Assembly: GCF_030817495.1 (NCBI RefSeq)
Contig: NZ_JAUSZK010000001.1
Location: 3,017,001 to 3,081,000, forward strand
Direction of reading: 5' to 3'
Source of the DNA: Streptomyces sp. V3I7
GTDB lineage: Bacteria > Actinomycetota > Actinomycetes > Streptomycetales > Streptomycetaceae
Length of the DNA stretch: 64,000 nt
A program made the translations under genes and the position numbers. Position 1 is the first letter of the stretch. Each line of letters begins with the position of its first letter. Of the stretch, positions 24,114 through 61,322 are shown piece by piece. Under the pieces are notes generated by a model, which was not told where the DNA came from, did no database searches, and saw only the letters and a program-made list of their open reading frames with translations.

Positions 24114-25766
<1,653 letters not shown>

Positions 25767-25863: not shown

Positions 25864-25890
25864 TTGTCACTCTCACCTTCAGAGTGCTAA
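25864..25890 (-). promoter_or_regulatory. CIRCE operator 1 (HrcA site)
   Basis: TTGTCACTC, nine bases, GAGTGCTAA: one half is perfect and the other differs from TTAGCACTC at two positions. It lies just downstream of the predicted groEL transcription start. Confidence 0.85.
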
Positions 25891-25895
25891 CGCAA

Positions 25896-25924
25896 TGATT
25901 AGCACTCGGCATGGTCGAGTGCAA
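25896..25924 (-). promoter_or_regulatory. groEL promoter
   Basis: On the minus strand TTGCAC (25919-25924) and TAATCA (25896-25901) are 17 bases apart. The -35 box lies inside CIRCE operator 2 and the -10 box between the operators, so HrcA binding would block RNA polymerase. Confidence 0.6.
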
Positions 25925-25925
25925 G
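25899..25925 (-). promoter_or_regulatory. CIRCE operator 2 (HrcA site)
   Basis: TTAGCACTC, nine bases, GAGTGCAAG: one half is perfect and the other carries two changes from GAGTGCTAA. It covers the -35 region of groEL. Confidence 0.85.
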
Positions 25926-26101: not shown

Positions 26102-26305
26102 TCAGGCGGTGACGCGAACCATGTCGGCCTGCGGACCCTTCTGGCCCTGCGAGATCTCGAACTCGACCCGCTGGCCCTCTTCCAGGGTGCGGTAACCGTC
26201 CATCTGAATGGCGCTGTAATGGACGAAGACGTCCGCACCACCGTCGACCGCGATGAAGCCGTAGCCCTTCTCCGCGTTGAACCACTTGACGGTGCCCTGA
26301 GCCAT
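26102..26305 (-). CDS. Cold-shock protein, CspA family
   Basis: The 67-residue protein is a canonical single-domain cold-shock protein with 'KGYGFI' (RNP1) and 'VFVHYS' (RNP2). It binds single-stranded RNA/DNA and acts as an RNA chaperone in the cytoplasm. ATG 26305 has GGGGAG six bases upstream; the ten codons upstream in the open frame are not part of the family. A long leader region precedes it, as is usual for csp genes. Confidence 0.95.
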
Positions 26306-26660
26306 GCCTAACTCCCCTATTACTGGCCCTTGCACAGATCCACCCTTCGCGGACCCGGGTCAGACCTCGCCCCCCAATCGGTCGGGGGCGTGCGCCGGAA
26401 CGCGTCGACCGCGGCTGAATGTATCTGCCCAACTGCCGTCTGCAACAGGTCAATCGGACGAGAATTCTGGACGGACTCGATCCGGAATATGGCGAGAATT
26501 CCCTGGAATTCAGGGCAAGTCGGACCCCGCGAAAGTCACAAATGCCGCGAAGAGTAAGTGCAGTTTGGCTGCTTCTTGTCGGGTGTGCGGCAAGAATCCG
26601 GGGCTTCTGCCCCGGGCGGGCGGGAGTGCGTTCCCCAACTGTACCGCGCTCAATCACGCG
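26306..26660 (-). promoter_or_regulatory. Long A/T-richer control region before the cold-shock gene
   Basis: This 355-base gap has no credible gene. It is clearly less GC-rich than its surroundings around 26410-26580 and includes repeated 'gaattc'-type words, plus one strong hairpin, CCGGGGC-TTCT-GCCCCGG, at 26598-26615. A promoter and a structured 5' leader for the csp gene are the simplest reading; exact boxes were not assigned. Confidence 0.45.
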
Positions 26661-26699
26661 GAATTGCCCCCTCCGTTTCTCTCACGGAGGGGGCAATTC
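26661..26699 (-). terminator. Terminator of the thrC-like/sulfur-carrier operon
   Basis: GAATTGCCCCCTCCGT and ACGGAGGGGGCAATTC make a perfect 16-bp stem with a 7-base loop, 22 bases after the operon's last stop codon. Confidence 0.82.
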
Positions 26700-26720
26700 G
26701 CCGCACGGCCGGTAACCGGA

Positions 26721-26996
26721 TCAGCCTCCGGCGACGGCGGGAATGATGGACACTCCCGCACCCTCCGGGGTCACCGTCTGAAGGCCCTGCTCGAAGCGCA
26801 CGTCGTCGTCGTTGACGTACACGTTGACGAAACGGCGCAGCTTGCCCTGGTCGTCCAGGACGCGGGCGGCGATGCCGGTGTGGTTCTTCTCCAGGTCGGC
26901 GATGACGTCGCCGAGGGTGGCGCCCTCGGCGGCGACCTCGGCCGCGCCACCCGTGTAGGTGCGCAGGATGGTGGGGATGCGAACGGTCACGCTCAT
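26721..26996 (-). CDS. MoaD/ThiS-like sulfur carrier protein
   Basis: The 91-residue protein has the beta-grasp fold of ubiquitin-like sulfur carriers and ends in Gly-Gly ('SIIPAVAGG'), the residue pair that is adenylated and turned into a thiocarboxylate. Its ATG overlaps the stop of the thrC-like gene by four bases (ATGA), so the two are translationally coupled. With a SAM riboswitch in front, it most likely hands sulfur to the PLP enzyme for homocysteine synthesis. I recall a Streptomyces MetM/MetO system of this type, and this would be MetO; I have not verified it. Confidence 0.85.
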   Translation of the reverse strand: MSVTVRIPTILRTYTGGAAEVAAEGATLGDVIADLEKNHTGIAARVLDDQGKLRRFVNVYVNDDDVRFEQGLQTVTPEGAGVSIIPAVAGG

Positions 26997-28273
26997 ACGA
27001 GGCCAGCCTCTCGGAAGGAGTCCAGGTCAGGACGGATCGTCGCGGTGAGCCCCGTGCCGGCCACCGCGTCCAGGGTCTTCAGTCCGTCGCCCGTGTTGAG
27101 CACGACGGTGGTCTTCGCCGGGTCCAGCAGGCCGGCCTCGATCAGCTTGCGGGTCACGCCGACCGTGACGCCGCCCGCCGTCTCGGCGAAGATGCCCTCG
27201 GTCCGGGCGAGCAGCCGGATCGCGTCGACGACCTGCTCGTCCGTCACGTCCTCCACGCCGCCGCCGGTGCGCCGCACGATGTCGAGGACGTAGGGGCCGT
27301 CGGCCGGGTTGCCGATGGCGAGGGACTTGGCGATGGTGTCCGGCTTCTGCGGCCGGACCACGTCGTGGCCCGCCTTGTAGGCGGTGGACACCGGTGAGCA
27401 GCCCTCGGCCTGCGCCCCGAAGATCTTGTACGGCCGGTCCTCGACCAGCCCGAGCGCGATCAGCTCCTTCAGCCCCTTGTCGATCTTCGTGAGCTGGGAG
27501 CCGGAGGCCACGGGGACGACGATCTGGTCGGGCAGCCGCCAGCCGAGCTGCTCGCAGATCTCGTACGCCAACGTCTTGGAGCCCTCGGCGTAGTACGGCC
27601 GCAGGTTGACGTTGACGAAGCCCCAGCCCTCGCCGGCCGGGTCGCCGATCAGTTCCGAGCAGAAGCGGTTGACGTCGTCGTAGTTGCCCTCGATGCCGAC
27701 GAGGTCGCCGCCGTAGACCGCGGCCATGACGATCTTGCCCTGCTCCAGGTCGTGCGGGATGAACACGCAGGAGCGCAGGCCCGCGCGGGCGGCGGCGGCG
27801 CCGACGGCACCGGCGAGGTTGCCCGTGGAGGAGCAGGACAGGGTGGTGAAGCCGAAGGCGCGGGCGGCCTCCAGGGCCTGGGCGACGACGCGGTCCTTGA
27901 AGGAGTGCGTCGGGTTGCCGGAGTCGTCCTTGACGTACAGCCCGCCGGTCACGCCGAGTTCGCGCGCCAGGTTGTCGGCGCGGACGAGCTTGGTCCAGCC
28001 GGGGTTGATGTTGGGCTTGCCGGCCACGTCGGCGGGGACGGGCAGCAGGGGGGCGTAGCGCCAGATGTCGGCGGGGCCGGACTCGATACGGGCGCGGAGT
28101 TCCTCGGTGTCGTACGCCGAGAAGTCGTAGGCGATCTCCAGCGGGCCGAAACACTCCTCGCAGGCGAATACCGATCCGAGCGGTACCCGGTGGCCGCATT
28201 CGCGGCAGCTCAGCGCTTCGGCGGGACCGAGGTCGACGGACGATGTGGTGGTCGCGACGGTCTGCACAGCCAT
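26993..28273 (-). CDS. thrC: Threonine synthase-family PLP enzyme, probable homocysteine synthase
   Basis: The 426-residue protein has a zinc-ribbon-like N-terminus ('CRECGHRVPLGSVFACEEC') and a threonine-synthase PLP domain; the Schiff-base Lys is in 'GNPTHSFKDR' and the phosphate-binding loop region in 'SCSSTGNLAGAVGA'. By fold it acts on O-phosphohomoserine. Coupling to a sulfur carrier and a SAM-I riboswitch points to replacement of phosphate by sulfide, giving homocysteine, rather than threonine formation; Streptomyces has another thrC beside hom and thrB. ATG 28273 lies after AAAGGG; the longer upstream frame runs into the riboswitch. Confidence 0.85.
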   Translation of the reverse strand: MAVQTVATTTSSVDLGPAEALSCRECGHRVPLGSVFACEECFGPLEIAYDFSAYDTEELRARIESGPADIWRYAPLLPVPADVAGKPNINPGWTKLVRADNLARELGVTGGLYVKDDSGNPTHSFKDRVVAQALEAARAFGFTTLSCSSTGNLAGAVGAAAARAGLRSCVFIPHDLEQGKIVMAAVYGGDLVGIEGNYDDVNRFCSELIGDPAGEGWGFVNVNLRPYYAEGSKTLAYEICEQLGWRLPDQIVVPVASGSQLTKIDKGLKELIALGLVEDRPYKIFGAQAEGCSPVSTAYKAGHDVVRPQKPDTIAKSLAIGNPADGPYVLDIVRRTGGGVEDVTDEQVVDAIRLLARTEGIFAETAGGVTVGVTRKLIEAGLLDPAKTTVVLNTGDGLKTLDAVAGTGLTATIRPDLDSFREAGLV

Positions 28274-28290
28274 AAAGGCGAGGCCCTTTC

Positions 28291-28433
28291 TCCTCATCTT
28301 CCTCACGACGCATCTCGCCGTGAGACGGATTTGGCACCTTCCCTAGCCGGGAGCCTCGCCGCATGAGACGAGTACCGACTGGAGGGTTGCCGGGGCTTCA
28401 TCGGGCCGTGTCCCTCTGCCCCTCTGGATGAGC
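28291..28433 (-). ncRNA. SAM-I riboswitch (S-box)
   Basis: On the minus strand the conserved S-box parts appear in order: P1 5' strand CTCATCC with CAGAGG, 'GATGAAGCCCCGGCAACC' (28385-28402), a stem, 'GGTGCCAAATCC' (28327-28338), the P4 stem CGTCTCACGGCGAGATGCG region, and P1 3' strand GATGAGGA (28291-28298). The ribosome site GAGGAG (28290-28295) overlaps the P1 3' strand, so SAM binding should hide it and block translation. A small AAAGG/CCTTT hairpin directly before the ATG completes the expression platform. S-box RNAs respond to S-adenosylmethionine and control methionine genes. Confidence 0.9.
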
Positions 28434-28563
28434 TGTATGCGGTTGTGAACGGCGGAGACCCCCGACATGCGATGGTCATCCGCGTTGTTCAAGACTGTAA
28501 CCGAAGGCCAGGACAGTTGAGATAGTCGTCCGAACCGCGAGATGGATCGCTATGGATCAATGA

Positions 28564-28581
28564 GATCACCAGGGGGTGATC
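28564..28581. promoter_or_regulatory. 18-bp interrupted palindrome before gpgS
   Basis: GATCACC, four bases, GGTGATC. It lies ten bases upstream of the gpgS ribosome site and could be an operator or a leader hairpin. Confidence 0.45.
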
Positions 28582-28604
28582 ACGAAAGTGAGGAGGCGCG
28601 CACC

Positions 28605-29549
28605 GTGCTGGAAGAAGTCGAGCGCTGGCTGAGCACCCGCTCCTGGGCCGCGAGCGACCGCCCGCTCCGCCACCTCCTGGCGGCGAAGCAGCGCACGGGC
28701 CAGACGGTGTCCGTCGTGCTGCCCGCGCTCAACGAGGAGGAGACGGTCGGCGACATCGTCGCCGTGATCCGGCACGACCTCATGGAACAGGTCCCGCTCG
28801 TCGACGAGATCGTCGTCGTGGACTCGGGGTCGACCGACCGCACCTCGGAGGTGGCGGCCGAGGCCGGGGCCCGGGTCGTGCACCGCGACGAGATCCTGCC
28901 GCGCATACCCGCCGTCCCGGGCAAGGGCGAGGTGCTGTGGCGCTCCCTGCTGGTCACCGGCGGGGACATCGTCTGCTTCATCGACGCCGACCTGAAGGAG
29001 TTCTCCTCCGAGTTCGTCTCGGGGATCGTGGGCCCGCTGCTGACCGAGCCGGACGTGGGCCTGGTCAAGGCGATGTACGACCGTCCGCTCGGCTCGGCTG
29101 CCGGGCAGGGCGGCCGGGTCACCGAGCTGATGGCCCGTCCGCTGCTGAACCTGCACTGGCCGCAGCTGGCCGGTTTCGTGCAGCCGCTCGGCGGCGAGTA
29201 CGCGGCGCGCCGCTCGCTGCTCGAACAGCTGCCGTTCCCCGTGGGGTACGGGGTGGAGCTGGGCATGCTGGTCGACGCCCTGCACCTGGCCGGCCTCGAC
29301 GCGCTGGCCCAGGTGGACGTCGGGGTGCGCAAGCACCGGCACCAGGACGGGCAGGCGCTGGGCCGGATGGCCGCCGCGATCTACCGGACCGCGCAGCTGC
29401 GGCTGGCCCGCGGGCATCTCGTCCGTCCCGCGCTCACCCAGTTCGAGCGGGGCGAGGAGGGCTTCGAGCCGCGCACCTACTCGGTGGACACCGAGGAGCG
29501 GCCGCCGATGGTGGAGATCGCGGAGTACGCCTCGCGCCAGGTGGCCTGA
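28605..29549 (+). CDS. gpgS: Glucosyl-3-phosphoglycerate synthase
   Basis: The 314-residue GT81/GT2-like glycosyltransferase has 'VVLPALNEEETVGDIV' at the N-terminus, the sugar-nucleotide metal motif in 'CFIDADLKEF', and 'QPLGGEYAARRSLLEQLPF'. GpgS joins glucose from UDP- or ADP-glucose to 3-phosphoglycerate, the first step toward glucosylglycerate or methylglucose polysaccharide. GTG 28605 has a perfect AGGAGG eight bases upstream; in-frame ATG codons further up are before that site. The trehalose gene otsA follows 60 bases later, so this is a compatible-solute/storage-sugar neighbourhood. Confidence 0.9.
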   Translation: MLEEVERWLSTRSWAASDRPLRHLLAAKQRTGQTVSVVLPALNEEETVGDIVAVIRHDLMEQVPLVDEIVVVDSGSTDRTSEVAAEAGARVVHRDEILPRIPAVPGKGEVLWRSLLVTGGDIVCFIDADLKEFSSEFVSGIVGPLLTEPDVGLVKAMYDRPLGSAAGQGGRVTELMARPLLNLHWPQLAGFVQPLGGEYAARRSLLEQLPFPVGYGVELGMLVDALHLAGLDALAQVDVGVRKHRHQDGQALGRMAAAIYRTAQLRLARGHLVRPALTQFERGEEGFEPRTYSVDTEERPPMVEIAEYASRQVA

Positions 29550-61045: not shown

Positions 61046-61119
61046 AGCCCCCTGTCGGATTCGAACCGACGACCTTCGCTTTACAAGAGCGGCGCTCTGA
61101 CCAGCTGAGCTAAGGAGGC
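61046..61119 (-). tRNA. tRNA-Thr (anticodon UGU)
   Basis: The 74-nt minus-strand sequence folds as a tRNA: acceptor GCCTCCT pairs with AGGGGGC (one G-U) and T73 follows; the D arm is AGCTCAGCTGGTCAGAGC, the anticodon loop CTTGTAA with anticodon TGT, and the T arm contains GGTTCGAATCC. CCA is not encoded. The 3' end points towards the pigment cluster, the side on which an element integrated at a tRNA would lie. Confidence 0.93.
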
Positions 61120-61322
61120 GTGCGCAGGACGCTCGTGCAGTGTACCCAGGCGCGGCCCGCGGCCTGTCGAAAATCCCGGCGAAGTTCGCCCTCGCCAGGT
61201 ACTGACAGACCCCGACCCGCCAGGTACCGTCCTGACCCAGTCCACCCGCGTGGACTACACCACCACCTTCCTACAACGGATCGTCCGGCACGTTCCTGCC
61301 GGTAGAAGGGGGCCCATCCAGC

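What the first reader, a model, noticed from the sequence alone, without database searches (positions are those of the whole stretch)
26721..28433. SAM riboswitch controls a threonine-synthase paralogue coupled to a Gly-Gly sulfur carrier: a likely thiocarboxylate route to homocysteine
Seen: all conserved S-box segments in order on the minus strand, a PLP enzyme of the threonine synthase family, and a MoaD/ThiS-like protein ending in Gly-Gly whose start overlaps the enzyme's stop. Known: S-box RNAs turn off methionine genes; Gly-Gly sulfur carriers donate sulfide as thiocarboxylate; threonine synthase binds O-phosphohomoserine. Inference: the enzyme swaps phosphate for sulfide and makes homocysteine, so 'threonine synthase' would be a misannotation. 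I recall a recently described MetM/MetO pathway of this kind in Streptomyces but cannot confirm it here.
Basis: partly seen in the sequence, partly recalled or inferred. Interest (0 to 1): 0.75.

Follow-up and report, generated by a model that had tools for sequence, protein, structure and literature searches.

The report
Methionine-making switch, enzyme and sulfur carrier
A soil bacterium's gene of the "threonine synthase" family looks like the recently published enzyme MetM, which makes the methionine precursor homocysteine with a small sulfur-carrying protein under an RNA switch that senses S-adenosylmethionine; it is a known system, although some relatives appear to lack the carrier.

Summary
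Rfam SAM (S-box) matches window 28434-28291, minus strand, at 78.8 bits (cut-off 44.4), the genome's only match. Downstream lie a 426-aa threonine-synthase paralogue (28273-26993) and a 91-aa CysO-like carrier ending in Gly-Gly (26996-26721), overlapping as ATGA. The likely true thrC lies elsewhere.

That paper was not held; I saw it through passages of PMC12172450, which says S. albulus metM has an upstream SAM riboswitch.

Added here: in 100 genomes, 89 of 91 SAM riboswitches sit just upstream of metM. The P1 helix abuts the likely ribosome-binding site, so translational control is inferred. Six genomes have riboswitch and metM but no metO found; each has CysO beside cysM and mec, as does the window's genome, which has MetO too. 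A shared carrier or free sulfide is therefore possible. In 19 of 124 MetO proteins read in full, one residue follows the Gly-Gly.

The parts
28291..28434 (-). SAM-I (S-box) riboswitch aptamer; P1 helix from 28432-28427 (CUCAUC) and 28298-28293 (GAUGAG)
   Evidence: Rfam RF00162 78.8 bits, gathering 44.4; the strings CTCATC and GATGAG both occur within 330 nt upstream of the MetM match in 131 of 131 loci scanned (a string search, not a covariance test)
28285..28291 (-). likely Shine-Dalgarno AGAAAGG, one base after P1 ends, 11 nt before the ATG
   Evidence: longest match to the 16S 3'-end complement in the spacer (the 16S tail is recalled); AGAAAGG in this register is the best match in 104 of 131 loci
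26993..28273 (-). metM: threonine-synthase-family PLP enzyme, 426 aa, predicted homocysteine synthase using O-phosphohomoserine
   Evidence: TIGR00260 268.9 bits, PALP 233.2 bits; 37% identical to the genome's other ThrC; homologues at E <= 1e-60 in 92 of 100 genomes, own included, one of them (G082, 39%) judged a different enzyme
26721..26996 (-). metO: 91-aa ThiS/CysO-like sulfur carrier ending in Gly-Gly
   Evidence: Pfam ThiS 59.2 bits, CysO 3dwg_C E 9.5e-30, 62% identical to the genome's own CysO over 87 aa

Best explanation
This is the Streptomyces metM-metO operon under a SAM-I riboswitch. When S-adenosylmethionine is scarce the aptamer's P1 helix opens, the ribosome-binding site next to it is free and both proteins are made; when SAM is plentiful P1 closes beside that site and blocks it (inferred). 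MoeZ, encoded elsewhere, would adenylate the Gly-Gly end of MetO and load sulfur as a thiocarboxylate (inferred from mycobacterial CysO). MetM, a PLP enzyme, takes O-phosphohomoserine from the threonine pathway, releases phosphate and adds the carrier-borne sulfur to give homocysteine (MetM activity published for Streptomyces, seen second-hand; role of the MetO thiocarboxylate recalled), which is then methylated to methionine (inferred; those genes were not searched).
For: Riboswitch over its gathering score, unique in the genome. Of 100 genomes (own included) 91 have one SAM match each and 89 of the 91 lie directly upstream of a metM homologue. MetM is a paralogue: another ThrC (TIGR00260 321 bits) lies between hom- and thrB-like ORFs. 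In 131 MetM loci SFKDR, STGNLA and [TS]G[DE]GLKT are invariant and VN.N.RP..[AG]EG.KT is in 130, the exception L078 having TN for VN; the four ThrCs compared (own, 2zsj, 6cgq, 1uim) have NS.NP.R.EGQKT there. metO follows metM in 125 of 133 loci that contain metM. No MetY at E 1e-130 and only a 23-bit MetX fragment in the genome. MoeZ over its cut-off, with rhodanese domain. MetM activity, auxotrophy and riboswitch reported for S. albulus (PMC12172450 passages).
Against: No assay here. The genome also holds a cystathionine gamma-synthase-family enzyme over its cut-off (PRK07811, 677 against 513 bits) and a cystathionine gamma-lyase (532 against 440), so another route is not excluded; MetA was not searched. 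MetM and the MetX+MetY pair co-occur in 27 of 100 genomes and the pair is not significantly rarer with MetM (Fisher p 0.14). In the cyanobacterium Microcystis a protein 51.6% identical to MetM, with a metO-like neighbour, deaminated threonine and made threonine weakly in vitro, and its authors saw no methionine increase and conclude that it does not function fully as MetM in the cell (PMC12172450). Six genomes have riboswitch plus metM with no metO found.
Confidence: 0.93

Rival explanations
1. MetM takes its sulfur mainly from free sulfide or from the cysteine-pathway carrier CysO, and MetO is an aid that is dispensable.
For: Six genomes (G081, G083, G087, G092, G095, G096) have riboswitch and metM but no metO next to it; their ThiS-domain proteins are one CysO beside cysM and mec plus others that look ThiS- or MoaD-like, with two further types in G087. 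On the MetM tree absence needs 5 changes, at least 4 forced by starred branches. Four of the six lack both MetX and MetY.
Against: metO follows metM in 125 of 133 loci. CysO beside cysM and mec is not special to the six: it is also in the window's genome and in the two other genomes searched, G082 and G085. G095 is 75% complete; G087 has a further CysO-like protein (L205) that could serve. Five of the six rows are named in the tree's long-branch warning, so their places are unsure.
Confidence: 0.25
2. The enzyme is a second, SAM-regulated threonine synthase and MetO serves an unrelated sulfur transfer.
For: The best NCBIfam match is thrC over its cut-off; of the 120 relatives listed (7998 scored) those that bear a name are called threonine synthase; the cyanobacterial homologue has weak threonine synthase activity.
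Against: Another thrC is present in what reads as a hom-thrC-thrB cluster; SAM control fits methionine, not threonine; 89 of 91 SAM riboswitches in 100 genomes serve this gene; residues around the ThrC phosphate site differ; published MetM activity.
Confidence: 0.04
3. The riboswitch acts by transcription termination rather than on translation.
For: SAM-I switches often act so in Firmicutes (recalled). The minimum-energy fold pairs the P1 3' strand GAGG with a downstream CCUC, an alternative helix.
Against: Only 17 nt separate aptamer and ATG here, and 11-99 nt (once an overlap of 41) separate aptamer and MetM match in 89 pairs; TTTT occurs in the spacer of 1 of 131 loci; the terminator scan of 26300-28800 found two sites, both on the plus strand.
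Confidence: 0.1

Closest known systems
MetM/MetO homocysteine synthesis of Streptomyces (Hasebe et al. 2024, Appl Environ Microbiol 90:e01247-24, PMC11497804; not held; known here through passages of PMC12172450)
   Same: Threonine-synthase-like PLP enzyme, sulfur-carrier gene, upstream SAM riboswitch, genus Streptomyces.
   Different: No difference found in the window, but the S. albulus sequences were not compared; the metO-less relatives and the GG+1-residue forms may or may not be in that paper.
CysM/CysO/Mec+/MoeZ cysteine pathway of mycobacteria (PMC3227635, passages read)
   Same: Phosphorylated amino acid plus protein thiocarboxylate, PLP enzyme, carrier with AVAGG end; the own genome has mec-cysO-cysM and MoeZ.
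   Different: CysM uses O-phosphoserine and makes cysteine; MetO and CysO are separate genes, 62% identical.
Protein-thiocarboxylate methionine pathway of Wolinella succinogenes (Krishnamoorthy and Begley 2011; only the citation and its title seen; details recalled)
   Same: Sulfur for homocysteine comes from a protein thiocarboxylate.
   Different: That pathway uses a MetY-type enzyme and an acyl-homoserine (recalled).
Threonine synthase ThrC
   Same: Sequence family, and substrate O-phosphohomoserine.
   Different: Another ThrC, 37% identical, is elsewhere in the genome; the motif at the phosphate site differs.

Membership tests
SAM-I riboswitch (RF00162) | Covariance-model score over the gathering cut-off, whole model matched | tested here: met
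   78.8 against 44.4 bits, model 1-108
SAM-I riboswitch (RF00162) | SAM binding and SAM-dependent gene control | not testable with these tools
   needs in-line probing and a reporter
MetM/MetO system | ThrC-like PLP enzyme distinct from the cell's ThrC | tested here: met
   other ThrC at L003 between hom- and thrB-like ORFs (named by eye), 37% identical
MetM/MetO system | Adjacent Gly-Gly sulfur carrier | tested here: met
   26996-26721, ends AVAGG, ATGA overlap
MetM/MetO system | Upstream SAM riboswitch | tested here: met
   reported for S. albulus in PMC12172450
MetM/MetO system | Sequence similarity to the published S. albulus MetM | not tested
   no direct comparison; 60 same-genus genomes each have a match of 82-94% identity, that of G001 partial
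MetM/MetO system | Homocysteine from O-phosphohomoserine and carrier thiocarboxylate | not testable with these tools
   needs purified proteins
Threonine synthase (ThrC function) | thrC family score over cut-off | tested here: met
   TIGR00260 268.9 against 167.1 bits
Threonine synthase (ThrC function) | ThrC phosphate-site motif NS.NP.R.EGQKT (role recalled) | tested here: not met
   MetM has VNVNLRPYYAEGSKT; the ThrC Arg (160 in T. thermophilus by my count) aligns with Tyr
CysO carrier | Lies with cysM and mec | tested here: not met
   the genome's CysO is a different gene in mec-cysO-cysM at L014

The most novel reading that the evidence does not exclude
In several actinobacterial lineages the dedicated carrier MetO is absent while the SAM-riboswitch-controlled MetM stays, so one carrier, CysO, delivers protein-bound sulfur to both cysteine (CysM) and homocysteine (MetM); cysteine and methionine synthesis would then compete for one thiocarboxylated protein, with SAM gating only the methionine branch.
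Probability: 0.35. Interest if true: 0.5.

Novelty: already known. Interest (0 to 1): 0.3.

Why it matters
It corrects a family label: a gene that databases call threonine synthase is very probably the homocysteine synthase MetM. Such a gene is in 91 of the 100 genomes searched, own included, and in 62 of the 100 it is present while neither MetX (at E 1e-80) nor MetY (at E 1e-130) was found (three of those 62, G061, G068 and G093, have weaker MetX-like matches). These bacteria could otherwise be read as having a gap in methionine synthesis. The metO-less relatives offer a natural test of how specific sulfur carriers are.

Tried and rejected
Second threonine synthase: rejected because another thrC lies in a hom-thrC-thrB-like cluster and because of the SAM control. 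Mutual exclusion of MetM and MetX+MetY as evidence: not significant (64 of 91 genomes with MetM lack the complete pair, against 4 of 9 without MetM; p 0.14). The MetX model's cut-off of 500 bits was reached by none of 100 genomes and none of 14 control genomes, so I counted matches at E <= 1e-80 instead (33 genomes; 36 at 1e-30). G082's 39% match: treated as a different enzyme (no riboswitch found, joins ThrC on the tree) and left out of the MetM count. G077's SAM match (41.1 bits) is below the cut-off and lies by an acetyl-CoA-synthetase-like ORF (by eye); taken as chance. A first motif search for the aptamer core found 0 of 131 by a wrong pattern, a second 86 of 131; the P1-strand string search then covered 131 of 131. 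Structure prediction and fold search were not used: the sequence match to solved ThrC already indicates the fold. Papers: searches listed no full text of the MetM paper and nothing that I recognised on metO-less metM; since that paper could not be opened, it may already describe them. MetA, MetE, MetH and MetF were not searched.

Row notes: one search examined 135 loci, two without metM (L182, L183); 133 remain, 125 with metO (124 read in full by the script plus L181, whose GG end I read by eye) and 8 without: the six discussed, L186 (G082) and L187 (G090, a 78%-complete genome whose metM is cut at the contig end and whose other carriers were not searched). Searches used 131 loci, leaving out L182, L183, L186 and L187. 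Some loci are the same strain twice (for example L055 and L087); the tree used 126 distinct rows of 131. That tree is a quick one and warns of long branches among the non-Streptomyces rows. Of the 24 ThiS-domain matches the script could not read one (L207, in G082).

Full report
What is there. On the minus strand Rfam's SAM family matches 28434-28291 over its whole length at 78.8 bits (cut-off 44.4, E 7.1e-17). Then follow an ATG at 28273, an ORF of 426 codons ending at 26993, and an ORF of 91 codons from 26996 to 26721. Stop and start overlap as ATGA. The first protein matches NCBIfam thrC (268.9 bits, cut-off 167.1) and Pfam PALP; the second matches Pfam ThiS (59.2 bits), falls just under the SAMP1 cut-off (59.4 against 60) and by sequence is closest among solved structures to M. 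tuberculosis CysO 3dwg_C (E 9.5e-30). It ends in AVAGG.

Genome setting. The window lies at 3,017,001-3,081,000 of a 6.49-Mb contig of a genome 99.84% complete. A second threonine synthase (TIGR00260 321 bits), 37% identical to MetM, sits between ORFs that read by eye as homoserine dehydrogenase and homoserine kinase (L003). The SAM riboswitch is the only one. TIGR01392 (MetX) gives only a 23-bit fragment. Of three Cys_Met_Meta_PP enzymes over the Pfam cut-off, one is cystathionine gamma-synthase-like (PRK07811, 677 against 513 bits), one cystathionine gamma-lyase-like (PRK07582, 532 against 440) and one methionine-gamma-lyase-like under its cut-off; the genome has no MetY match at E 1e-130. 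MetA was not searched. Five ThiS-domain proteins exist: by eye one ThiS-like, two MoaD-like, MetO, and a CysO in a mec-cysO-cysM cluster (JAB and PALP domains, cysteine synthase over a cut-off). A MoeZ with ThiF and rhodanese domains is over its equivalog cut-off (754 against 647 bits). The parts for loading MetO with sulfur are thus present; that MoeZ does so is inferred from CysO, where MoeZ forms the thiocarboxylate (PMC3227635, passages read).

Conservation. Of 100 genomes (own included) 91 have a SAM match at E <= 0.001 (90 over the cut-off), one each; 89 of the 91 lie on the same strand directly upstream of a metM homologue, with gaps of 11-99 nt and one of -41. The other two are G077 (41.1 bits, below cut-off) and G099 (60.5 bits, before what reads as an ABC-transporter operon and divergent from MetY). 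Of the metM matches without a riboswitch, those of G001 and G090 are cut by contig ends and G082 is judged a different enzyme. Six genomes have neither (G075, G078, G080, G085, G089, G097). MetY over cut-off occurs in 33 of 100 and MetX matches at E <= 1e-80 in 33 (36 at E <= 1e-30; no genome or control reached that model's own cut-off). MetM alone: 62; MetM with both: 27; MetM with one of the two: 2; both without MetM: 5; none of the three: 4. The association is not significant (p 0.14). So MetM is often, but not always, the only one of these routes found.

The enzyme. In 131 loci the motifs SFKDR, STGNLA, [TS]G[DE]GLKT and an N-terminal pair of C..C are found in all, and VN.N.RP..[AG]EG.KT in 130, the last (L078) having TN for VN. 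Solved ThrCs 2zsj, 6cgq and 1uim and the own ThrC read NS.NP.R.EGQKT there. In the alignments the Arg of ThrC (160 in T. thermophilus by my count; its phosphate role is recalled) faces a Tyr of MetM. This is a consistent difference, not proof of altered chemistry.

The switch. The P1 strings CTCATC and GATGAG occur within 330 nt upstream of the MetM match in 131 of 131 loci, with GATGAGG in 130. The best match to the 16S tail (recalled) in the spacer is AGAAAGG starting one base after the helix in 104 of 131 loci, and AGGAG overlapping the helix by two bases in 9; the other 18 have other or shifted matches. With 17 nt to the ATG, no minus-strand terminator in the scan and TTTT in 1 of 131 spacers, control of translation is the likely mode. 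The minimum-energy fold without ligand does not form P1 but pairs part of its 3' strand with a downstream CCUC, a possible ON state; this is a suggestion only.

Carrier variants. metO follows metM in 125 of 133 loci with metM. Of 124 read in full, 105 end in GG, 18 in GGC and 1 in GGA. On the MetM tree the extension needs 13 changes, at least 9 forced by starred branches, so it came or went repeatedly. Such an end would have to be trimmed before loading; the own genome's mec-cysO-cysM cluster holds a JAMM-type protease, but whether such a protease trims MetO is unknown. In six genomes with riboswitch and metM (G081, G083, G087, G092, G095, G096) groEL, cspA or other genes follow metM with no metO. 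A whole-genome search for ThiS-domain proteins in these six and two others finds in each of the eight one CysO beside cysM and mec; the rest look ThiS- or MoaD-like, except that G087 also has a CysO-like protein of another type (L205) and a short one (L212), and G082's L207 and G085's L201 and L210 were not assigned. The window's genome has the CysO cluster too, so CysO is a candidate donor, not a trait of the metO-less. Absence of metO needs 5 changes on the tree, at least 4 forced, but five of the six rows are in the tree's long-branch warning. G081 and G087 have MetX and MetY; the other four have neither. G095 is only 75% complete.

What is known. PMC12172450 (passages read) reports that Hasebe et al. 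identified MetM as a homocysteine synthase in Streptomyces, with homologues in cyanobacteria; that S. albulus metM carries an upstream SAM riboswitch and prevents methionine auxotrophy; and that a Microcystis gene similar to S. albulus metO, of the sulfur carrier family, lies next to the Microcystis thrC. The Hasebe paper itself is not held. My memory of its abstract (recalled) is that thiocarboxylated MetO donates the sulfur and MetM takes O-phosphohomoserine. The window is therefore a member of a known system. A caution comes from the same source: the Microcystis homologue, 51.6% identical to MetM, shows threonine deaminase and weak threonine synthase activity in vitro, and its authors find that it does not function fully as MetM in the cell.

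Verdict. Observation confirmed, interpretation supported, system already known. What may be new is the absence of MetO in several lineages that keep MetM and its riboswitch.

Noticed in passing
L169, L170, L173, L176, L179, L180: metM with its SAM riboswitch but no metO found; CysO (with cysM and mec) is present in each genome.
   Followed up: partly
L057, L068, L073, L079, L080, L088, L096, L145, L154, L156, L158-L161, L163, L166, L167, L177, L185: MetO carries one residue (Cys, once Ala) after the Gly-Gly, scattered over the MetM tree.
   Followed up: partly
L182 2883-2970 (-): A SAM riboswitch (60.5 bits) before what reads as an ABC-transporter operon, divergent from a MetY gene, in a 1.3-Mb genome of the same class without a metM match at E 1e-60.
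   Followed up: no
window 25882-25925: CIRCE-like inverted repeats (GAGTGCTAA / TTAGCACTC; by eye and string search) upstream of groEL (24114-25736, minus strand), next to a cold-shock-like ORF at 26102-26335.
   Followed up: no
window 61258-61317 (+) and 61046-61119 (-): msiK RNA (RF01747, 59.6 bits) and a tRNA gene.
   Followed up: no
window 28542-29549 (+): Divergently read glycosyltransferase-like ORF (looks like glucosyl-3-phosphoglycerate synthase), followed by trehalose-phosphate synthase- and phosphatase-like ORFs; names by eye.
   Followed up: no
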